DNA from: Verrucomicrobiia bacterium
GTDB taxonomy: Bacteria; Zixibacteria; MSB-5A5; DSPP01
Assembly (NCBI GenBank): GCA_035574275.1
Contig: DATLYY010000021.1
Coordinates: 1 to 47,572, forward strand
Direction: 5' to 3'
DNA length: 47,572 nt
Positions 926 through 47,572 of this stretch are shown here, piece by piece. The notes below the pieces were generated by a model. That model ran no database searches. It was given only the letters and a program-made list of their open reading frames with translations, and was not told where the DNA came from. How positions within the stretch are numbered: position 1 is the first letter of the stretch; every line of letters starts with the position of its first letter. The position numbers and the translations under genes are program-made.

Positions 926-1509
926 CCGAAGAACAGTTAGCCCGATCGATGATTTCAAAATACCTTCCAAAAGAAAGCAGGGTATTCCGAAAGTTTTCAC
1001 ACAACACCAATTTAGACCGCGACTGGAATTATTACTGCGGCACCGACATCGATATTTTAGAAATCACAAAAGACAACCAAGTTATCGGGTATGAGCTTAA
1101 AGGATTTCGTAAAAATAAGGGAAAACAGGAGCCACCGGCTTTATATGAAGGGTTAGATCAGGCGTTGAACTACTTGAACCTGCCCTATGTGTTTGACGTT
1201 AACAACAAGATGCTATTTGAGGGCGGCGTCTTCGATCACGTTTACCTTGCCCACGCCCGGCAAAGCCCGACGTTTGAGAATTACGAACGCCGGGTATTTA
1301 ACGTCACACCAATAGGCTTTATCATTGCCACTCCAGATGGCCAATTTCATAAAGTTCAAGAGGCAAAGCTAAATCCAATTCAAGATGTGCATCTAAAAGA
1401 CCACTTCCTAAGGAATTTGGACAGTGTGAAGAAATTTAGCGTTGCAATTAATTCTGACGAAATCGAAAATGCTGCCACAGGTAGCTCTGTGGACAAAATA
1501 AGGCCATGA
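922..1509 (+). CDS. Uncharacterised protein with PD-(D/E)XK-like nuclease motif, inside hsd locus
   Basis: I do not recognise a named family. The 195-residue protein overlaps hsdM by 4 nt (ATGA) and the next gene by 4 nt, so it is translationally coupled within the R-M operon. Around residues 40-61 it reads GTDIDILEI...VIGYELKG, giving Asp42/Asp44 followed by Glu58-x-Lys60. That is the spacing of the D...ExK catalytic core of PD-(D/E)XK nucleases. About 20 residues later, YEGLDQALNYL resembles the Gln-containing helix after that core. No DNA-binding domain or signal peptide is obvious. It may be an accessory or alternative nuclease, or a defence gene carried with hsdMS. The fold assignment is inference from motif spacing only. 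Confidence 0.7.
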   Translation: MTEEQLARSMISKYLPKESRVFRKFSHNTNLDRDWNYYCGTDIDILEITKDNQVIGYELKGFRKNKGKQEPPALYEGLDQALNYLNLPYVFDVNNKMLFEGGVFDHVYLAHARQSPTFENYERRVFNVTPIGFIIATPDGQFHKVQEAKLNPIQDVHLKDHFLRNLDSVKKFSVAINSDEIENAATGSSVDKIRP

Positions 1510-2024
1510 ATTTTCTGGAACAGCTTGCCGCAGAGTGGTATGAATACAAGGGATATTTTGTCAGAACAAACATAAAATTCGGACCGTTGCGGGGAGGCGG
1601 ATACGCTGGTGAGATGGATGTCGTAGGATATAAACCGGAAGCGCAAGAATTAATACATATAGAAACGTCAGCCGACTCTTATTCCTGGGCAAGGAGAAAG
1701 CGAAATTTTGAACGGAAATTTACAGATGCAAGAAAGTATTATATGGAGATATTTCCTTTCAAACAGATGAGCATGAAACCGAGGCAGATTGCTTTGGTGG
1801 GCCTAAATCTTAACCCCTGCCCAGAAGTGAATTCTTGGAAATCATCGGCACCTTCCGGCTCTCCTTGGGAAGGAATCGGGATAGAAGTTCTGCACATTCC
1901 GGAGTTTTTGAGGCAAATCAATTCTGAACTGAGAAATAAAAATCCACGAAATGACGTGATTCCAGAAACGTATCCATTGTTACGAGCGATACAGCACTCC
2001 GCTTTCTACGATCGAAACAGATAG
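1506..2024 (+). CDS. Uncharacterised protein, degenerate nuclease-like fold, inside hsd locus
   Basis: This 172-residue protein begins at an ATG overlapping the previous stop (ATGA). Residues about 35-61 read GEMDVVGYKPEAQELIHIET then SADSYSW, like the E-x-D...(V/I)ExK core of restriction-like nucleases. The usual Lys is replaced, leaving E-T-S, so if the fold is right the catalytic triad is incomplete or altered. A basic stretch (ARRKRNFERKF) follows. I recall uncharacterised proteins with an 'HIExS...SW' signature near type I R-M genes, but cannot name the family. The sequence is AT-richer than the chromosomal part of the window, consistent with transfer. Function unknown; a DNA-interacting accessory to HsdMS is the simplest guess. 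Confidence 0.65.
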   Translation: MNFLEQLAAEWYEYKGYFVRTNIKFGPLRGGGYAGEMDVVGYKPEAQELIHIETSADSYSWARRKRNFERKFTDARKYYMEIFPFKQMSMKPRQIALVGLNLNPCPEVNSWKSSAPSGSPWEGIGIEVLHIPEFLRQINSELRNKNPRNDVIPETYPLLRAIQHSAFYDRNR

Positions 2025-2036
2025 GAAATAAATAGA

Positions 2037-3239
2037 ATGTCTTGGCCAACAAAAAAATTAGGAGAAATTGCAAAAGAAATAAGGTCTGGCTTCGCGTGTG
2101 CCAAGACAAAACGAGTCGAGGATGGTGTTATTCACTTGCGTACCAACAACATAAGTTTAGACGGGAGATTGGACTTGTCGACCATTACAAAAATACCGAA
2201 ACGATTTGTCGACGAAAAGGCAGATTCTTTAAAGAAAAACGACATCTTGTTTAACAACACAAATAGTGTCGAACTTGTAGGTAAAACCTTACTTGTCGAC
2301 AGTGACTTACCGTATGCATTTAGTAACCATTTGACGAGAATTCGTGTGGATGAAAAAGTCGCGATGCCAAAATATGTGGTTCTGATGTTTTGGAAATTCT
2401 GGCAAGAAGGCTTATTCGCCCGGCTCTGCACTCAATGGGTGAATCAGGCCGGTATCAATCAGACAAAATTAGAAGCTATTAAGATCCCGCTCCCGCCCCT
2501 CGACGAACAAAAGAGGATCATATCTAAAATCGAAAAACTTTTTGTGAAACTTGACGAGGCCGGCCGCCTACGCGCTGAAGCCCTCTCCGCCTCCGCTGCC
2601 CTTTTGCCCTCCGCCCTGCACGATGTGTTTGGCCGCGCCGGAAGAGAAGGTTGGGAGGAAATAAAACTTATCGATATTTGCGAAAAAACTAAGTTGGTCC
2701 AACCGGAGAAAATCAGTAAAGGCAGCTTCAACTATATTGATATAACCTCGGTAAGCGAGATGGACGGAATTGGTGCGATAACCGCGCGAGTTTTACCGGT
2801 AAAAGAGGCCCCTTCTCGTGCGCGCAAACTGGTTCGAGAAGGCGATACCATTTTTGCCACGACGCGACCGTACTTGAAACGCATAGCATTTATTCCAAAG
2901 GATTTGAGTAATTCGATCGCTTCTACAGGTTTTTGCGTGTTACGACCGAAAGAAGGAATTGCAGATTCCAGCTACGTTTTTCACATCGTTAATTCCGATA
3001 ATTTTGTTTCAAAAATTATTCCGCTACAGCGCGGTGCGTCCTATCCGGCCGTTTCTGATAAGGACGTTCTAAGCCAAACGATTCCTCTTCCGACTTTCGC
3101 CGAGCAGAGAAAGATAGTTGAGTATTTGGACGCACTCTCTGCCAAGACTCGAGAGCTCCAATCCCTGCAGGAGGCGACGGCAAACGAATTTGTGGTGCTG
3201 CGGCAGTCCATCCTCGCGCACGAACTTGGCTCATCGTAA
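2037..3239 (+). CDS. hsdS: Type I restriction-modification specificity subunit HsdS
   Basis: The target-recognition subunit of a type I R-M enzyme: it binds the bipartite DNA site and scaffolds HsdM and HsdR. The 400-residue protein shows the two-repeat layout. TRD1 (about residues 1-155) starts SWPTKKLGEIAKEI; the central conserved helix follows IPLPPLDEQKRIISKIEKLF (about 156-200). TRD2 (about 205-355) starts GWEEIKLIDICEK, and the second conserved helix follows IPLPTFAEQRKIVEYLD to the end. The paired LPPL/LPTFxEQ signatures are diagnostic. It begins 12 nt after the preceding gene, with AGGA about 11 nt upstream of the ATG. The first half is markedly AT-rich and the central helix more GC-rich, suggesting TRD swapping. 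No hsdR follows; the island ends about 240 bp later. Confidence 0.95.
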   Translation: MSWPTKKLGEIAKEIRSGFACAKTKRVEDGVIHLRTNNISLDGRLDLSTITKIPKRFVDEKADSLKKNDILFNNTNSVELVGKTLLVDSDLPYAFSNHLTRIRVDEKVAMPKYVVLMFWKFWQEGLFARLCTQWVNQAGINQTKLEAIKIPLPPLDEQKRIISKIEKLFVKLDEAGRLRAEALSASAALLPSALHDVFGRAGREGWEEIKLIDICEKTKLVQPEKISKGSFNYIDITSVSEMDGIGAITARVLPVKEAPSRARKLVREGDTIFATTRPYLKRIAFIPKDLSNSIASTGFCVLRPKEGIADSSYVFHIVNSDNFVSKIIPLQRGASYPAVSDKDVLSQTIPLPTFAEQRKIVEYLDALSAKTRELQSLQEATANEFVVLRQSILAHELGSS

Positions 3240-42482: not shown

Positions 42483-45098
42483 ATGCGGGTCTCTATCTTT
42501 TTTTTGCTGGCTTCACCGGCGCTGCTTTTGGCGGCCGAGCCGGATTCCACGGAAAGAAAAGTCCCCGAACACAAGGCCGTCCGGGTCACCAACCCCATAA
42601 AACTGGACGGCATCCTCTCCGAGACGGAATGGCAGACCCCCCCTGTCACCGGATTTATCCAAAAAGACCCGAAGGAGGGGCAGCCCGCTTCCGATTCCAC
42701 CAAAGTCTGGTTCGCCTACGACGACGAGGCGCTTTTCATCGGCGCCCGGATGCACTGCCCCGATTCGCTCGGCATCCGCTCCCTGGTTTCCCGCCGGGAC
42801 CAGACCGGCAATTCGGAGCGGATCATCATCTCCTTGGACACCTATCTGGACCGCCGCACCGCCTACACCTTCGCCGTGGCGGCCTCCGGCACGCGGGCCG
42901 ACTACTACCACGCCACGGACGACGAATACAACCGGGATTATTCCTTCGACCCGGTCTGGGAGGCGAAAACGAGAATCGATTCGGCCGGCTGGACGGCGGA
43001 GATGCGCATTCCGCTTTCACAGCTGCGCTTCAACGCCAAGGATGTGCACACTTGGGGATTCAACATCAACCGCTGGGTTCCCACCCGCAACGAGGATGAC
43101 TATTACGTGTACATTCCGAAAAAAGAGACCGGCTGGTCCTCCCGCATGGCCCGCTTGAACGGCATCACCGGCATCAAGCCCGCCCGGCGGTTGGAAGTGA
43201 TTCCCTACGGCGCCTCGGACGCCACTTTCACCTACGGCCGGGACAAGAAAAACCCGTTCGACGACGGGGTGAACATGAAAGGGCGCACCGGGGCGGATAT
43301 CAAAATGGGTTTGGGGCCAAATCTGACTTTGGATGCCACTGTCAATCCCGACTTCGGGCAGGTGGAAGCCGACCCGGCCCGGGTGAACCTTTCCGCCTTC
43401 GAAATCATCTTTGACGAAAAGCGCCCCTTCTTTGTCGAGGGAAACCAGCTTTTGCGGGGGAACGGCCCGGCCTACTACTACTCCCGGCGGATCGGCGCGC
43501 CGCCGCGGGGTTCGGCTTCCGGCGATTACGTGGACCGTCCCAACACCTCCACCATTCTGGGGGCCGGCAAGCTGACCGGGCGGCTGGCCTCCGGACTTTC
43601 CATCGGGGCGTTGGCGGCGCTCACCGACGAGGAGTTTGCCGAAAGCTACGACACGGCAGGCGTTTCCTACAGCAAAACGCTGGTCGCCCCCCGCACCGGC
43701 TTTGGCGTGTTGCGTCTGCAGCAGGAGTTCGGCCCCTCCGCCTCTACGGCCGGGCTTTCGCTCACCGGCGTGGGGCGGGATTTGTCAAAAAGCCGGGAGC
43801 TCTGGCAGCTCCTGACCCACCAGGCGTATGCCGGCGGCGGAGATCTGAATTTGCGTTTCAAGGGAGGGGAATATGTGCTTTTGGGGACGTTCGGCTTCAG
43901 CCACATTAAAGGGGACTCGAACGCCCTCCAGCGGGTGCAAACCTCCAGCGCCCATTACTTCCAAAGGCCGGATGCGGACCACGTGGAATTCAAACCGGGG
44001 CGCACCTCCCTTTCCGGCTACCAGGGGTTTCTCCGCTTTTCAAAAAACAGCGGCAAGCACTGGCTTTGGGAAACGAGCATCGGGGCGGAATCCCCCGGCT
44101 TCGAATTGAACGACGCCGGCCGTTTGAATTCGGCGGACGACATCGACTTTTTCGGCGCTTTGAAATACCGGGAAAACCAGCCGGGGAAATATCTGCAAAA
44201 CTACAACCTCGCCTTCTACGCCGGGCGGGGGTGGAATTTCGGCGGCGCCCACCAGTACACCTTTTTCGATTTCGAAAACAACTTCACCTTCAAGAATTTC
44301 TGGGGACTTTTTCTCGGCTCCGAAATTTATCCCCGCTCCTTCAGCGACGACGTCACCCGCGGCGGCCCCATGATGAAAGACCCCTTCGGCTGGAACGTTG
44401 CCGCGCAGATTTCAAGCAATTTCGCCTCCAATACCAACTGGTATTTGTACGGGATGTATGACAAAAACGAAATCGGGCACTGGTATTACTATCTGGAAAG
44501 CAAACTGGGGGTGCGGACTTCGGGGCGGTGGGAGTTTTCCGTTCTGCCGTATTACGAACGGGGGCTTACGATTCGGCAGTATATCGCCACACTGGGCGGG
44601 GGGAGGCCGGAAACGTTCGGCAACCGCTACGTTTTTGCCTATCTCGACCAGAGCACTTTGGCGACGCAGTTTCGAATCAACTACGCCTTCACCCCGGATT
44701 TGACGCTTGAACTGTACGCCGAGCCGTTTGCGGCCTCCGGAAAATTTTACAACTTCGGGGAGCTGGAGGCGCCCAAGACGACCTTGCCCGCGCAGTATGG
44801 AACCAATGGCACCACCATTACTTACGACAGTTCTTCGCGGACGTACACGGTGACGGACGGCACGTCCAGCTTTACGCTCGACAATCCGGATTTCAACATT
44901 CTCTCCTTCCGCAGCAACGTGGTTTTGCGATGGGAGTGGCTGCGGGGGAGCACGATGTATTTTGTCTGGGCGCGGAATTTATCCGAGTTTGAAGCGCAGG
45001 GGCGGCACGTTCGCCCGAGCCGGCTTTGGGACGCCTTTACCACCGGCGGGGATGTTTTCGTCGCGTTAAAAATCAGCTACTGGATCCCGGTCAGTTAG
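42483..45098 (+). CDS. DUF5916 outer-membrane barrel protein with N-terminal CBM9-like domain
   Basis: An 871-residue exported protein. The start is ATG 42483, four bases after AGGAGG; a signal peptide follows (RVSIFFLLASPALLLAAE). Residues about 35-210 form a carbohydrate-binding-module-9-like beta sandwich: IKLDGILSETEWQTPP, VWFAYDDEALFIGARM, DPVWEAKTRIDSAGWTAEMR and IPLSQLRF. The remainder (PDFGQVEADPARVNLS, FFVEGNQLL, then repeated strands) is the DUF5916 barrel seen in many Bacteroidota and FCB bacteria, ending ALKISYWIPVS. Function is not established in the family; binding or passage of sugars or peptides across the outer membrane is inferred from the two domains. A strong terminator follows. 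Confidence 0.88.
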   Translation: MRVSIFFLLASPALLLAAEPDSTERKVPEHKAVRVTNPIKLDGILSETEWQTPPVTGFIQKDPKEGQPASDSTKVWFAYDDEALFIGARMHCPDSLGIRSLVSRRDQTGNSERIIISLDTYLDRRTAYTFAVAASGTRADYYHATDDEYNRDYSFDPVWEAKTRIDSAGWTAEMRIPLSQLRFNAKDVHTWGFNINRWVPTRNEDDYYVYIPKKETGWSSRMARLNGITGIKPARRLEVIPYGASDATFTYGRDKKNPFDDGVNMKGRTGADIKMGLGPNLTLDATVNPDFGQVEADPARVNLSAFEIIFDEKRPFFVEGNQLLRGNGPAYYYSRRIGAPPRGSASGDYVDRPNTSTILGAGKLTGRLASGLSIGALAALTDEEFAESYDTAGVSYSKTLVAPRTGFGVLRLQQEFGPSASTAGLSLTGVGRDLSKSRELWQLLTHQAYAGGGDLNLRFKGGEYVLLGTFGFSHIKGDSNALQRVQTSSAHYFQRPDADHVEFKPGRTSLSGYQGFLRFSKNSGKHWLWETSIGAESPGFELNDAGRLNSADDIDFFGALKYRENQPGKYLQNYNLAFYAGRGWNFGGAHQYTFFDFENNFTFKNFWGLFLGSEIYPRSFSDDVTRGGPMMKDPFGWNVAAQISSNFASNTNWYLYGMYDKNEIGHWYYYLESKLGVRTSGRWEFSVLPYYERGLTIRQYIATLGGGRPETFGNRYVFAYLDQSTLATQFRINYAFTPDLTLELYAEPFAASGKFYNFGELEAPKTTLPAQYGTNGTTITYDSSSRTYTVTDGTSSFTLDNPDFNILSFRSNVVLRWEWLRGSTMYFVWARNLSEFEAQGRHVRPSRLWDAFTTGGDVFVALKISYWIPVS

Positions 45099-45113
45099 GG
45101 GTTCCTTCCGCGC

Positions 45114-45147
45114 AAAAAGCCCTCCTTTTTGGAGGGCTTTTTGTTTT
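45114..45147. terminator. Strong, probably bidirectional terminator
   Basis: Twelve-base perfect stem AAAAAGCCCTCC (45114-45125) / GGAGGGCTTTTT (45131-45142), loop TTTTT, then TTTTTG-rich tail. The A tract on the other side allows termination from the right as well. Confidence 0.92.
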
Positions 45148-45165
45148 TCACCAATTCCTGCTTTC

Positions 45166-45232
45166 GTAGGGGCGAATCTTGCTTGCCCTGAGCGTAGCCG
45201 AATGGGTATTCGCCCGTTTCTTCTTGCCCTAC
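45166..45232. repeat. Nested palindromic element (REP/MITE-like)
   Basis: Outer inverted repeats GTAGGG (45166-45171) and CCCTAC (45227-45232) enclose GGGCGAAT (45170-45177) and ATTCGCCC (45208-45215). The core contains CCTGAGCGTAGCCGAA, which resembles a short word often seen in repetitive intergenic DNA of environmental bacteria. There is no open reading frame. Only one copy is in this window, so repeat status is inferred from structure. Confidence 0.5.
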
Positions 45233-45284
45233 AACGTCACCCGGGGCCTCGTGAAAAGAATCTAAACCACCGACAAAAAACCGC

Positions 45285-45313
45285 TTGACAGATTTGCAAG
45301 GGCGTTGTACATT
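45285..45313 (+). promoter_or_regulatory. Promoter of accessory GHKL cassette, near-leaderless
   Basis: Consensus TTGACA (45285-45290), 17-nt spacer, TACATT (45308-45313), with the first ATG at 45321, seven bases beyond the -10 box. It is one of the best -35 boxes in the window. Confidence 0.65.
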
Positions 45314-45320
45314 CCAAAAT

Positions 45321-45572
45321 ATGAAGCGTATTTACAATGGTGAAGAACAAAGTGTTAACCCTGAAACGGCCAGGGACCGTTTTAAGCGATTGGCTTCGCT
45401 TAGAACAAATGCTGTACTAAGAAGGCTAAAGGTTCTTGGCAACTGTGCAAATCGACATTACTACGATTACTCGGAGGAGGACATAAAAAAAATATTTTCG
45501 ATCATCGAAAAGCAGGTTCAAGAAGTAAAAACCCGATTCTATTTTCCCAAAGAAAAGGAATTCAAACTCTGA
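45321..45572 (+). CDS. Small uncharacterised protein, first gene of GHKL cassette
   Basis: An 83-residue protein I cannot assign. The ATG at 45321 is preferred; the earlier in-frame TTG (45285) is the -35 box itself. After a variable start it has RFKRLASLRTNAVLRRLKVL, then GNCANRHYYDYSEEDIKKIF and SIIEKQVQEVKTRFYF: two amphipathic helices around an N-x-x-N-x-x-x-Y-x-Y turn. Similar short proteins with 'Y.YSeEDi.KIF' ends occur, to my recollection, in mobile or defence loci. No DNA-binding motif is certain. The stop overlaps the next ATG by one base (TGATG), so it is translated with its neighbour. AT-rich, unlike the upstream genes. Confidence 0.7.
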   Translation: MKRIYNGEEQSVNPETARDRFKRLASLRTNAVLRRLKVLGNCANRHYYDYSEEDIKKIFSIIEKQVQEVKTRFYFPKEKEFKL

Positions 45573-46246
45573 TGACCAGTAAAATAAATTCAAAGCAAAC
45601 TGTCCAGGAAGAATTTGCACCTTCTACGTATTTGAAGATTGGTATGGATGACCTCGTTACAGCCGCTCTATACTTCCTTCAAAGATCCGAGAAAACCCCA
45701 ACATTTGAAAATCTTGTGGCGAAAGCGTACGAACTATTTCCCGAGCGTTTTGCGATGGTCGGGTATCCTCAATGGCCCGACTCAGCATTAATAAACAAAT
45801 CCTGGTTGAGGTGCAGAGCAGATAAGCAACTAATAACCGGTAGTGTAGCAACTGGATTTACTTTAACCCCCAAAGGAGAAAAAGTCGCAGAAAAAACGCT
45901 TTTAAGGTTGAATTTTGTTGAAATAAAAACAGCCACAAAAAAAGGCGACCGACGAAGTATTGCCGGGAGAGTCGTTTCAAGAGTAGAGAAAAGTATGGCA
46001 TATAAAAAATTCCTTGAAAATAATTCTATAGAAAATGTTACCGAATATGAGATGTGTGATTTGCTTTATGGTACACTTGAGAGTTCGCCGGAGACTTTAG
46101 CAAAAAATTATGAAACAGTTATTCAAAATCTCAATGATTTTCCGCGAAATGACCTGATCGAATTCTTGAAAGCTCTCCGTAATAAATTTCTTAATCGGTT
46201 CGTGGTTGCTAAAATGAGGGGTGGAATGTTACCCCAGAAGACGTAA
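45572..46246 (+). CDS. Uncharacterised protein with winged-helix-like N-terminus, GHKL cassette gene 2
   Basis: A 224-residue protein of no recognised family. Residues about 24-110 have the helix-strand pattern of a winged helix: LVTAALYFLQRSEKTPTFEN, LVAKAYELFPERF, then INKSWLRCRADKQLITGS then FTLTPKGEKVAEKTL, where FxLTxxGxxxA is typical of the wing of MarR/PadR-like folds. The second half is charged and helical (VSRVEKSMAYKKFLENNSIE; DLIEFLKALRNKFLNRFVV). It may recognise DNA or regulate the cassette. It begins at the overlapping stop/start of the small gene and ends 18 nt before the ATPase gene. Confidence 0.7.
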   Translation: MTSKINSKQTVQEEFAPSTYLKIGMDDLVTAALYFLQRSEKTPTFENLVAKAYELFPERFAMVGYPQWPDSALINKSWLRCRADKQLITGSVATGFTLTPKGEKVAEKTLLRLNFVEIKTATKKGDRRSIAGRVVSRVEKSMAYKKFLENNSIENVTEYEMCDLLYGTLESSPETLAKNYETVIQNLNDFPRNDLIEFLKALRNKFLNRFVVAKMRGGMLPQKT

Positions 46247-46264
46247 ACGCGAAAGGAGTTCAAA

Positions 46265-47452
46265 ATGGTTTTGGTTAAAAGGAAACTGCTGGCAGGCCGC
46301 AGAGCATTTGTAACCTTAGCTTCTCAATCAATAGGGAACGATCTATTAAAAGGGTTGGTGGAGATAATTACAAACGGTGACGACAGTTATTATCGACTCG
46401 AAAGTAAAGGAATACCGGGGTCGGGCAAAATTGAAATAGAAATTGACAGAAGACCGAAAAGCAAACAAACTCTAATCCGAATAAGAGATTTTGCCGAGGG
46501 TATCGACAATCAAAGAATGGACGAGTGTGTAGGCTACTACGGCGAGAACGTTAGCGGCGATACAGGAAGAGGGTTTTTTGGGATGGGATTAAAAGACACC
46601 ATCATCAATTTTGGGGAAGGAGAGATAAAATCAATAAAGGATGCAAAGTATTATCGGTGCAAACTTAAAGCAGATGATTTTACTCTTTACAATCCTACAA
46701 CTGCTGACAAAAGGATTCGGAAGGAGCTCTCTATTCCCAATAATGGAACAGTCGTGGAAATTCTCGTAACGAATCCGAGAGTGAGAATTCCATATTTTGA
46801 AAACCTCCGAGAAGATCTTCAAAATCATATTCTGCTTCGTTTAATAATGTCCGATACACATCGAACTATTGTATTAAGAGACTTGCGGAGCGGAAATGAG
46901 AGCACACTTTTTTATCAAGAACCGGAAATCGATGCAATTCTTTTCGACAAAGTCGTACCAATTCCGGAATTTCCAAACGCCCAAATCCAATTTACAGTTA
47001 AGAAAGCAAAAGGTTCCTTTCCACTAAGCCAGGAAGGTTCCTGCCGGACAGGGGGAATTCTTATTACTACACGTAGAACGGTCCATGAAGCAACGCTATT
47101 TGAATATGATTCGGATCCATTTGCTGCTAATTTATTTGGGGAATTAAGATGTGAATACATATATGAACTCCAACATTCCTCTGAGCCAGTTGTGGACAGG
47201 AATCGCGATGGTTTGATGAGAAACCATCCGTTCACAAAATGTTTGGTCAGGGAAGCAAAGAAAATTTTGAAAACCATAGTTGAAGAGGAAAAAGAAAAAG
47301 AAAAACAGAGAGAAAGAGAGCTTGAAAACGAAAATACCAGAAAACGATTTCAAGAAGCGGTAAAAGAACTGAACAAAATAGCAACTCTTGAATTAGAAAA
47401 GCTAAGTGGGCCGGGAACTGGCGGCACAGGACACTGTACTGCTCCCCTTTAG
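46265..47452 (+). CDS. GHKL (Bergerat-fold) ATPase, 3' end interrupted by IS3-family element
   Basis: An ATP-binding protein of the Hsp90/MutL/histidine-kinase fold. N box LVEIITNGDDSYYRL (Glu33, Asn37, Asp40), G1 box IRDFAEGID (Asp75...Gly79) and G2 box GRGFFGMGLKDTI (about residues 101-113) are all intact. The rest resembles MORC/Hsp90-like stand-alone ATPases, with a strongly charged coiled coil at about 345-385 (EEEKEKEKQRERELENENTR). A good ribosome site (AAAGGAG, 46252-46258) precedes the ATG by six bases. The native sequence runs to 47434; the last five codons (Cys-Thr-Ala-Pro-Leu) and stop are IS sequence, so the protein is truncated after a Gly-rich stretch and the 3' part would lie beyond the IS. 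AT-rich; probably a defence or mobile-element gene. Confidence 0.85.
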   Translation: MVLVKRKLLAGRRAFVTLASQSIGNDLLKGLVEIITNGDDSYYRLESKGIPGSGKIEIEIDRRPKSKQTLIRIRDFAEGIDNQRMDECVGYYGENVSGDTGRGFFGMGLKDTIINFGEGEIKSIKDAKYYRCKLKADDFTLYNPTTADKRIRKELSIPNNGTVVEILVTNPRVRIPYFENLREDLQNHILLRLIMSDTHRTIVLRDLRSGNESTLFYQEPEIDAILFDKVVPIPEFPNAQIQFTVKKAKGSFPLSQEGSCRTGGILITTRRTVHEATLFEYDSDPFAANLFGELRCEYIYELQHSSEPVVDRNRDGLMRNHPFTKCLVREAKKILKTIVEEEKEKEKQRERELENENTRKRFQEAVKELNKIATLELEKLSGPGTGGTGHCTAPL

Positions 47453-47572
47453 TCAAGCGGCCTGATATGGAGTCATCGGGCTGAGGTTATAGGTTTTCTC
47501 GAACCTGTTCGGCGGCTGGTAGCCCAGGGCCGAGTGCAGGTAGGTTTCGTTGTACGTTTCGATCCAGCCGTT
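47435..47572 (-). mobile_element. End of an IS3-family (IS150-like) insertion sequence
   Basis: TGTACTGCTCCCC at 47435-47447 matches the terminal inverted repeat type of the IS150 group of IS3 (TGTACTG.nCCC). It lies 18 bases from the transposase stop, the usual position of the right end. The rest of the element runs past the window edge, so the left end and target duplication are not visible. It interrupts the GHKL ATPase gene. Confidence 0.8.
47453..47572 (-). CDS. IS3-family transposase, C-terminal 39 residues (5' part beyond window)
   Basis: The minus strand from the window edge is open for 39 codons: NGWIETYNETYLHSALGYQP, then PNRFEKTYNLSPMTPYQAA, stop at 47455-47453. 'N.WIetYN...lHSALGY..P..f' is the C-terminal end of the IS3 orfB DDE transposase, just after the catalytic Glu. 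Only this end is visible, so whether the element is intact cannot be told. Confidence 0.9.
   Translation of the reverse strand, partial: NGWIETYNETYLHSALGYQPPNRFEKTYNLSPMTPYQAA

What the first reader, a model, noticed from the sequence alone, without database searches (positions are those of the whole stretch)
45321..47434. Three-gene GHKL ATPase cassette of unknown function, probable defence module
A small helical protein, a winged-helix-like protein and a Bergerat-fold ATPase share one near-leaderless promoter, with overlap or short gaps. They are AT-richer than the rest and lie next to a mobile element. Known defence systems use GHKL ATPases with a DNA- or RNA-acting partner, but I do not recognise this set.
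Basis: partly seen in the sequence, partly recalled or inferred. Interest (0 to 1): 0.62.

Follow-up and report, generated by a model that had tools for sequence, protein, structure and literature searches.

The report
Mobile winged-helix and MORC-like ATPase cassette

Summary
The three ORFs are real, AT-rich (39.7% GC against 55.5% for the rest; 0 of 433 same-size windows as low) and share one good promoter. The third is truncated after ~390 codons by an IS copy at the contig end. Full-length relatives are mostly ~590-800 aa GHKL ATPases. Of 80 fetched relatives, 42 have the winged-helix (wH) gene directly beside the ATPase gene, in bacteria and archaea, with no phylum clustering in the tree. 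AlphaFold/Foldseek: the ATPase has the HSP90/MORC fold, P0002 a winged helix. The 83-aa leader recurs upstream of wH in 5 of the 42. On plasmids its family precedes GHKL-type genes in 11 of 13 records, including PADLOC candidate PDC-M33 and a GajA-containing operon. Neighbours are enriched in DNA methyltransferases. By synteny, the host's other flank carries a defence-candidate HEPN gene and CapH/CapP-like regulators. In one locus the wH-ATPase pair interrupts a methyltransferase gene with a 13-bp repeat. Best reading: a laterally mobile genome-defence module, MORC-clamp-like, matching no PADLOC model, inactive here. Defence is inferred from context; nothing was tested functionally. It differs from MORC, CapK/CapS and PDC-M33 on tested features.

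The parts
45285..45313 (+). sigma-70-like promoter (TTGACA, 17 nt, TACATT)
   Evidence: 10 of 12 matches, joint best of 6 sites in 45000-47572 (3.7 expected by shuffling); consensus match only
45321..45572 (+). P0001, 83-aa small helical leader protein; family alignments A8 and A12; conserved C-terminal Phe-x-Leu-like tail (EFKL here)
   Evidence: homologues directly upstream of wH in 5 of 42 loci and upstream of GHKL-type genes in 11 of 13 plasmid records
45572..46246 (+). P0002, 224-aa winged-helix protein (wH at residues 17-119, then a helical C-terminal half 130-215)
   Evidence: partner adjacent to the ATPase gene in 42 of 80 loci
46265..47434 (+). P0003, N-terminal ~390 codons of a GHKL (Bergerat-fold) ATPase: GHKL and S5-like domains and start of the coiled coil; C-terminal Ig-like and helical domains missing
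   Evidence: fold of full-length relative L013
47435..47572 (-). end of an IS with IS3-type transposase reading (recalled from sequence, no family search made); cuts the ATPase gene; contig ends inside it
   Evidence: sequence; 11 matches in the own genome, all starting at query position 8-11 except the window's own

Best explanation
The cassette is a copy of a laterally mobile two- to three-gene genome-defence module. The core is a winged-helix protein plus a MORC/HSP90-like GHKL ATPase; an optional ~80-aa helical leader precedes them. Proposed mechanism (inferred): the winged-helix protein recognises or loads onto DNA and recruits the ATPase. The ATPase dimerises through its ATP-bound GHKL heads and its C-terminal helices into an ATP-gated clamp, and topologically holds or compacts invading DNA, as MORC proteins do, thereby blocking its transcription or replication. 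A subset of loci adds a DNA methyltransferase that could mark self DNA. The leader is most likely a regulator or adaptor common to several GHKL-type defence operons. Shown: gene set, pairing, fold, motif conservation, horizontal distribution, mobility in one locus, defence-type neighbours. Inferred: DNA clamp, recruitment by wH, anti-invader function. In this genome the ATPase is truncated after its S5-like domain and the module is probably dead.
For: wH adjacent to GHKL in 42 of 80 loci, spacing -107 to +41 nt in 38 of those 42 (the other 4: two reversed orders, two split ATPase genes). GHKL-motif residues E, N, D, G, G and T identical in 40 of 40. HSP90/MORC3/MORC2 fold; winged helix. No phylum clustering on the tree: 21 changes against 21.8 shuffled; archaea and bacteria mixed. 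Near neighbours (147 proteins): N6_N4_Mtase 6, N6_Mtase 2, PIN 5, Fic 2; the far set (147 sampled of 228) has none of these in its list down to 2 members; PADLOC MTase_II models reach 5 of 147 near and 1 of 147 far. Leader family precedes PDC-M33A (E 4e-82, 2e-108) and a GHKL+GajA (E 8e-221) operon on plasmids, and leader+GHKL+wH together on an Ensifer conjugative plasmid. Host island: HEPN_Swt1 = PDC-M34B E 7e-81, CapP-like peptidase, CapH-like HTH. MORC2 acts as an ATP-driven DNA clamp (PMC12216690, passages).
Against: No functional test. No PADLOC model matches P0001-P0003 or the relatives tested. Most of the 42 loci show no known defence gene next door; many lie alone inside housekeeping operons. 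No match in plasmid or phage collections for P0003 or for the L013 ATPase in plasmids. Contiguity of the window with contig C47 is inferred from a sister genome only. DNA binding by either protein is not shown. The C-terminal domain was not searched on its own.
Confidence: 0.45

Rival explanations
1. It is a regulator pair, not a defence effector: the GHKL protein senses DNA damage or stress and controls the winged-helix repressor, as CapK (GHKL kinase) controls CapS (STAS-wHTH repressor), tuning neighbouring genes.
For: GHKL+wH gene pair next to defence genes, as in CapK/CapS (PMC13373217: abstract and passages read); capK-capS also lies beside R-M systems in 88 of 443 cases there. The small leader resembles in size and position the 79-aa repressor RptR (PMC12255303, passages).
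Against: Architecture differs: no STAS domain; the ATPase carries an S5-like domain, a coiled coil, Ig-like strands and C-terminal helices typical of clamps, not of anti-sigma kinases; HSP90/MORC top fold hits. Most pairs have no constant downstream operon to regulate.
Confidence: 0.2
2. Restriction-modification accessory: the wH-ATPase pair is the restriction arm of a methylation-dependent system (paraMORC-like), the methyltransferase giving self-protection and an unlinked nuclease doing the cutting.
For: DNA methyltransferase within two genes (>=100 aa) in up to 8 of 147 near proteins of 42 loci; also next to L010 and L012 pairs and upstream in Ensifer. Iyer et al. 2008 (PMC2292703, parts 1-2 of 4 read) place MORC/paraMORC ATPases mainly in R-M operons.
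Against: About 80% of loci lack a neighbouring methyltransferase; no constant nuclease or helicase gene.
Confidence: 0.2
3. A selfish or passively mobilised gene pair: it inserts into operons and genes as a unit and persists without serving the host.
For: In L020 a 2,693-bp stretch holding only wH and ATPase interrupts a methyltransferase gene between two copies of a 13-bp repeat; the joined flanks give a 393-aa open frame. L048 has ~50-bp repeats around the pair. Co-directional insertion in atp, trp, suf, pdh operons.
Against: No transposase or recombinase in the unit; direct repeats stand out in only 3 of 42 loci (L020, L042, L048; the L042 one is a palindromic dispersed-type repeat); ATPase motifs are kept intact across phyla, implying selected function.
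Confidence: 0.1
4. An HSP90-like chaperone module for a host process unrelated to defence.
For: HSP90s are among the best fold matches; standalone relatives of the same length class without wH occur in Marinobacter, Thauera, Acetobacterium, Rhodococcus without a conserved neighbourhood.
Against: Patchy, laterally transferred (4 of 131 other genomes of the phylum have a match and one of these four is a decayed fragment), with a winged-helix partner and a defence-linked leader.
Confidence: 0.05

Closest known systems
paraMORC and prokaryotic MORC GHKL ATPases (Iyer, Abhiman, Aravind 2008, PMC2292703)
   Same: GHKL plus S5-like domain, own C-terminal extension, sporadic distribution across bacteria and archaea, some methyltransferase neighbours
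   Different: MORC-specific S5 motif absent in 40 of 40; no constant SFII helicase; constant winged-helix partner gene not described in the parts read
PDC-M33 (PADLOC candidate: GHKL-type protein, B, DUF6339)
   Same: Same family of ~80-aa leader protein as first gene; GHKL-like motifs by eye; methyltransferase/Vsr neighbours
   Different: No profile similarity between the ATPases; partner genes differ; no PDC-M33 model hits our proteins
CapK/CapS (Chambers et al. 2026, PMC13373217)
   Same: GHKL protein plus wHTH protein linked to defence loci
   Different: CapK is HTH-STAS-GHKL kinase and CapS STAS-wHTH; here no STAS, a large MORC/HSP90-like ATPase
Shedu with GHKL N-terminus, VcSduA / paraMORC3 (PMC12137116)
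   Same: GHKL ATPase in anti-phage defence, dimeric clamp-like model
   Different: VcSduA carries a DUF4263 nuclease; no nuclease family was detected here
MORC2/MORC3 (eukaryotic silencing ATPases)
   Same: Fold (5ix2, TM 0.55 to target); proposed clamp mechanism
   Different: No CW domain detected; ~13% identity; prokaryotic operon partner
RptR (79-aa repressor of R-M islands, PMC12255303)
   Same: Size and first-gene position of the leader protein
   Different: Homology not shown; profile and single-sequence searches of the PDB did not list it

Membership tests
GHKL superfamily | ATP-binding motifs (ExxxN, DxxxG, GxxGxG, GT) | tested here: met
   E42, N46, D84, G88, G120 and T181 (L013 numbering) in 40 of 40 aligned proteins including P0003; G118 in 39 of 40 and G180 in 36 of 40
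MORC (Iyer 2008) | GHKL followed by S5-fold domain | tested here: met
   model secondary structure after residue 220 and Foldseek overlap with MORC3 ATPase-CW over ~420 columns; S5 domain not searched alone
MORC (Iyer 2008) | GhXhhpXXRhl motif in S5 domain | tested here: not met
   regular expression found in 0 of 40 proteins
MORC/paraMORC R-M operons | SFII helicase neighbour in ~70% of operons | tested here: not met
   no helicase family in more than 2 of 147 near-neighbour proteins from 42 loci (list cut at 25 families)
paraMORC1-5 | sequence membership of one of the five families | not tested
   no member sequences were at hand
paraMORC3 / Shedu GHKL type | C-terminal PD-(D/E)xK nuclease (DUF4263) | tested here: inconclusive
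   no Pfam or PADLOC nuclease hit in the L013 ATPase; C-terminal domain not searched by fold alone; absent in the truncated window copy
CapK/CapS | STAS domains in both proteins; small GHKL kinase | tested here: not met
   no STAS hit in Pfam for P0002/P0003 or wH family; model of P0002 is wH plus helical half
PDC-M33 | match to PDC-M33A/B/C models | tested here: not met
   no hit for P0001-P0003, L013 pair, L084 leader or L137 pair; ATPase profiles do not align
HSP90/HtpG | HSP90 family sequence | tested here: not met
   only HATPase_c or HATPase_c_3 hits, no HSP90 family; recalled HtpG motif absent in the 80 loci's forward frames
anti-phage defence system | protects a host against phage or plasmid | not testable with these tools
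   context only
winged-helix DNA-binding proteins | wH fold | tested here: met
   VIA Z 10.8, rmsd 3.8, 89 aligned (SSV1 F93); Z 10.6, rmsd 2.4, 87 aligned (AF1382); DNA binding itself not tested

The most novel reading that the evidence does not exclude
A nuclease-free prokaryotic immunity in which a MORC-like ATP-gated clamp, loaded by a winged-helix partner and licensed by an ~80-aa leader common to several unrelated GHKL-type defence operons, silences invading DNA by topological capture; the two core genes themselves move as a discrete unit that can jump into operons and even into a methyltransferase gene.
Probability: 0.2. Interest if true: 0.75.

Novelty: new variant of a known kind. Interest (0 to 1): 0.5.

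Why it matters
If true, it gives a compact, transferable two- to three-gene system in which to test what prokaryotic MORC-like ATPases do. Iyer et al. predicted these ATPases to act in restriction systems in 2008, and nuclease-linked GHKL defence (VcSduA) is now shown (PMC12137116), but silencing by DNA capture without a nuclease has not appeared in the papers I searched. It would tie eukaryotic MORC silencing to prokaryotic immunity. The leader family offers a search handle for further GHKL-type defence operons.

Tried and rejected
HSP90/HtpG identity of the 32 non-wH loci: first suspected, rejected because a recalled HtpG motif is absent and their sequences show the same overall architecture as the wH-linked ATPases (read by eye).

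Single-query scans of genome contigs and viral contigs with P0003 found nothing; the genome-contig scan with alignment A4 worked. Plasmids and phages with P0003: none; L013 ATPase in plasmids: none; L137 ATPase: only itself in plasmids, none in phages.

The missing C-terminal half of the ATPase was sought in the own genome with a relative's C-terminal part (none) and by the full family profile (only the window copy); lost or in an assembly gap.

Homology of the ATPase to PDC-M33A: profile comparison negative, so the likeness rests on motif reading by eye. PDB search with the PDC-M33A profile: 0 hits. Leader-protein profile against the PDB: only helical noise. HepT-like hit of the leader (E 0.011, below cut-off) not pursued.

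Direct repeats as a general sign of transposition: outstanding in 3 of 42 loci only, one of them (L042) a palindromic repeat, so not generalised.

Papers: PMC2292703 parts 1-2 of 4 read; PMC13373217 abstract, outline and passages; PMC12137116, PMC8011034, PMC12458937, PMC12839542, PMC7159879, PMC3710099, PMC12255303, PMC13092281, PMC12409349, PMC12216690 passages only; all others seen as search listings and abstract beginnings.

Rows dropped before counts: the 80 loci are the best 80 of 170 relatives. ATPase alignment A9 has 39 of 42 wH-linked loci (L042 with masked residues, L027 and L041 split genes left out) plus P0003; wH alignment A10 has 41 of 42 (L024 left out) plus P0002. Neighbour proteins shorter than 100 aa were not scanned and longer ones were cut at 340 aa; the far set is 147 sampled of 228. 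Of the 13 plasmid records with the leader family, 11 were opened (H1-H3, H5, H6, H8-H13); H4 and H7 were counted with H3 and H6 because their table rows (coordinates, identity) are the same or nearly so. In Deinococcus, Arthrobacter and Agrobacterium the next gene was classed by a library search; in Priestia, Planococcus, Rhizobium and Dinoroseobacter by similarity to those; Ensifer by the A9 profile.
Full report
Observation. The finding holds at its coordinates. Three co-directional ORFs of 83, 224 and 395 aa overlap by one base or are 18 nt apart. They follow a promoter-like site at 45285-45313, and the first ATG lies about 8 nt after the -10-like hexamer. The block has 39.7% GC against 55.5% for the rest of the window; none of 433 windows of the same length is as low. 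From about 47435 on the sequence is repeated 11 times in the genome, mostly at contig ends; read by eye it is the end of an IS3-type element on the minus strand. The window is a complete contig of a 2.5-Mb, 79-contig genome. A relative in the same class as the own genome (G025) appears to be Zixibacteria bacterium RBG_16_53_22, since contig lengths agree, so the host is probably a member of that lineage (inference).

Full-length relatives. By single protein, 6 of the 193 other genomes searched have a match, one of them a fragment with stop codons; by profile, 11 of 385, three of them weak. A genome-contig scan with a five-row alignment gave 170 relatives; the best 80 were fetched. The window ATPase is about 390 of usually 590-800 residues. 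In 42 of the 80 loci a homologue of P0002 is adjacent to the ATPase gene: upstream in 40, downstream in 2. Spacing is -107 to +41 nt in the 38 loci with upstream wH and an unsplit ATPase gene. Two of the 42 have split ATPase genes (L027, L041), and two more are short (L058, L061). The other 38 loci comprise 6 mainly Rhodothermales-type proteins without a detectable wH and 32 others, mostly ~630-aa standalone relatives with no shared neighbours (six of the 32 showed no forward ATPase ORF after my overlap filter).

Fold. The L013 ATPase model (pLDDT 87.8, pTM 0.65) matches HSP90s (E about 1e-11) and MORC3 ATPase-CW (E 1.9e-11, TM to target 0.55): a GHKL head, an S5-like domain, two long helices, a strand-rich region and two C-terminal helices. 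The P0002 model (pLDDT 87.7) is a winged helix at residues 17-119 (VIA Z 10.8 to SSV1 F93, Z 10.6 to AF1382) plus a helical half without a tested match. GHKL key residues are identical in 40 of 40 sequences; the MORC-specific S5 motif of Iyer et al. is found in 0 of 40.

Distribution. In the tree of 40 ATPases, phylum labels need 21 changes (20 is the minimum for 21 groups; shuffled mean 21.8; as low in 40 of 200 shuffles). Bathyarchaeota, Nanoarchaeota and Nitrososphaerota sequences lie among bacterial ones. This fits repeated lateral transfer, though most groups have a single row and uncultured bins can hold foreign contigs. Many copies sit co-directionally inside housekeeping operons: between atpG and atpD (L015, L016), trpG and trpD (L013), after pdh genes (L061), after sufB (L023) (names by eye or from Pfam). 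The nearest upstream gene of at least 60 aa is co-directional in 32 of 39 loci that have one, the downstream in 30 of 40 (counted from its table; unfiltered ORFs).

Mobility. In L020 two copies of a 13-bp repeat 2,693 bp apart bracket exactly the wH-ATPase pair, and the flanks, joined in a script, form one 393-aa methyltransferase frame similar to those of L036, L012 and L010. About 0.006 such exact 13-mers are expected by chance in that search space for one locus, that is about 0.3 over 42 loci; the restored reading frame is the stronger part of the argument. L048 has an imperfect ~50-bp repeat around the pair. Of the other 40 loci only L042 has an outstanding repeat, and that one is palindromic. 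In the sister genome G001 the gene left of the cassette (81% DNA identity) has its last 65 bp duplicated around a roughly 0.9-kb single-gene insert, so the same gene end is a recurrent insertion site.

Defence context. (1) Near neighbours: of 147 proteins within two genes of the 42 pairs, Pfam finds N6_N4_Mtase 6, PIN 5, AAA_14 3, N6_Mtase 2, Fic 2; among 147 sampled farther genes none of these reaches the top list except DUF4143-type proteins at 2. PADLOC MTase_II models reach 5 near and 1 far. This is a moderate enrichment; most loci have no known defence gene beside the pair. (2) The leader: homologues directly precede wH in 5 of 42 loci (L027, L044, L073, L084; in L031 one 184-aa gene lies between) and keep a Phe-x-Leu-like C-terminus. 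Among 386 genomes the leader profile matches 7, the window genome included. In plasmids 13 records match P0001. The next large gene is GHKL-type in 11 of 13 records: PDC-M33A in Deinococcus and Arthrobacter (E 2e-108, 4e-82) with M33B/M33C, the same layout in two Priestia and one Planococcus, a HATPase_c_3-like gene (E 0.003, below cut-off) followed by GajA (E 8e-221) in Agrobacterium (two records), related genes in Dinoroseobacter (two) and Rhizobium (one), and our own type, leader + ATPase + wH, on an Ensifer conjugative plasmid (A9 E 1e-7, A10 E 4e-9). Neorhizobium and Vescimonas do not fit. C5 methyltransferase, Vsr, restriction endonuclease and Shedu genes flank several of these. The leader family is wider than this: weak relatives occur in 12 phage records, mostly of Synechococcus. 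(3) Own genome: the HAD gene that follows the insertion site in the sister genome lies on contig C47; beyond it towards the contig end are a patatin gene, a CapH-like HTH, a CapP-like peptidase and a HEPN_Swt1 protein that matches PDC-M34B (E 7e-81), the last three in ~39% GC DNA. If C21 and C47 adjoin, the cassette is part of an accessory island with defence candidates. This adjacency is inferred from synteny.

Mechanism. Most likely (0.45): an anti-invader module in which the winged-helix protein provides DNA contact and the ATPase acts as a MORC-like ATP-gated clamp. Eukaryotic MORC2 clamps and compacts DNA with ATP (PMC12216690, passages). Shown here are fold, motifs, pairing and context; DNA capture, loading by wH and the leader's role are inferred. 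Rivals: a CapK/CapS-like regulatory pair (0.2), a restriction-modification accessory (0.2), a selfish gene pair (0.1), an HSP90-like chaperone (0.05). The window copy lacks the C-terminal third or more of the ATPase, and no other copy of that part was detected in the genome, so it is probably inactive.

Known kinds. The closest are the paraMORC/MORC ATPases of R-M systems (PMC2292703). Tested defining features of MORC proper (S5 motif) and of its operons (helicase) are not met. CapK/CapS differs by STAS domains; PDC-M33 shares only the leader family and GHKL-like motifs, with no profile similarity between ATPases. No PADLOC model matches the set. I found no paper describing the wH-ATPase pair in seven searches; preprints and subscription journals are mostly not held. 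I therefore rate it a new variant of a known kind.

Noticed in passing
L116 2585-3629 (G001:C38): In the sister genome the 3' end (65 bp, 92% identical) of the gene left of the cassette is duplicated around a ~0.9-kb single-gene insert (protein without Pfam match): a recurrent insertion site at a gene end.
   Followed up: partly
G000:C47:35157-39152 (L118): AT-rich stretch with HEPN_Swt1 (PDC-M34B), CapP-like peptidase and CapH-like HTH, plus a patatin-like gene, probably the other side of the island cut by the IS.
   Followed up: partly
L037, L046, L047, L055-L057, L060, L062-L065, L067-L071, L075-L080, L083, L086, L088, L090-L092: ~630-aa standalone GHKL relatives with similar C-terminal sequence, without wH and without conserved neighbours, in Marinobacter, Thauera, Acetobacterium, Rhodococcus, Arthrobacter and others; function unknown.
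   Followed up: no
L010 7024-15579: Two wH-ATPase pairs of different subfamilies in one locus, separated by a dihydrolipoamide-dehydrogenase-like gene, with a DNA methyltransferase next to the second pair.
   Followed up: partly
L132-L136, L139, L147: The ~80-aa leader family also starts PDC-M33 operons and a GHKL+GajA+UvrD operon: a possible shared regulator or adaptor of GHKL-type defence operons.
   Followed up: partly
L007 (G045:C11): Decayed remnant of the ATPase with four in-frame stops.
   Followed up: no
L015, L016, L017, L019 downstream of the ATPase: Small acidic 70-90 aa proteins (cluster c7) directly after the ATPase gene in four Chloroflexota loci.
   Followed up: no
L043 6928-13643 and L051 11751-17488: Pairs lie beside DUF499/DUF3780/DUF1156-type and helicase-methyltransferase genes (read by eye, partly PADLOC), resembling BREX-related systems.
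   Followed up: no
window 1001-3000: A second GC drop (43-44%) at the other end of the window.
   Followed up: no
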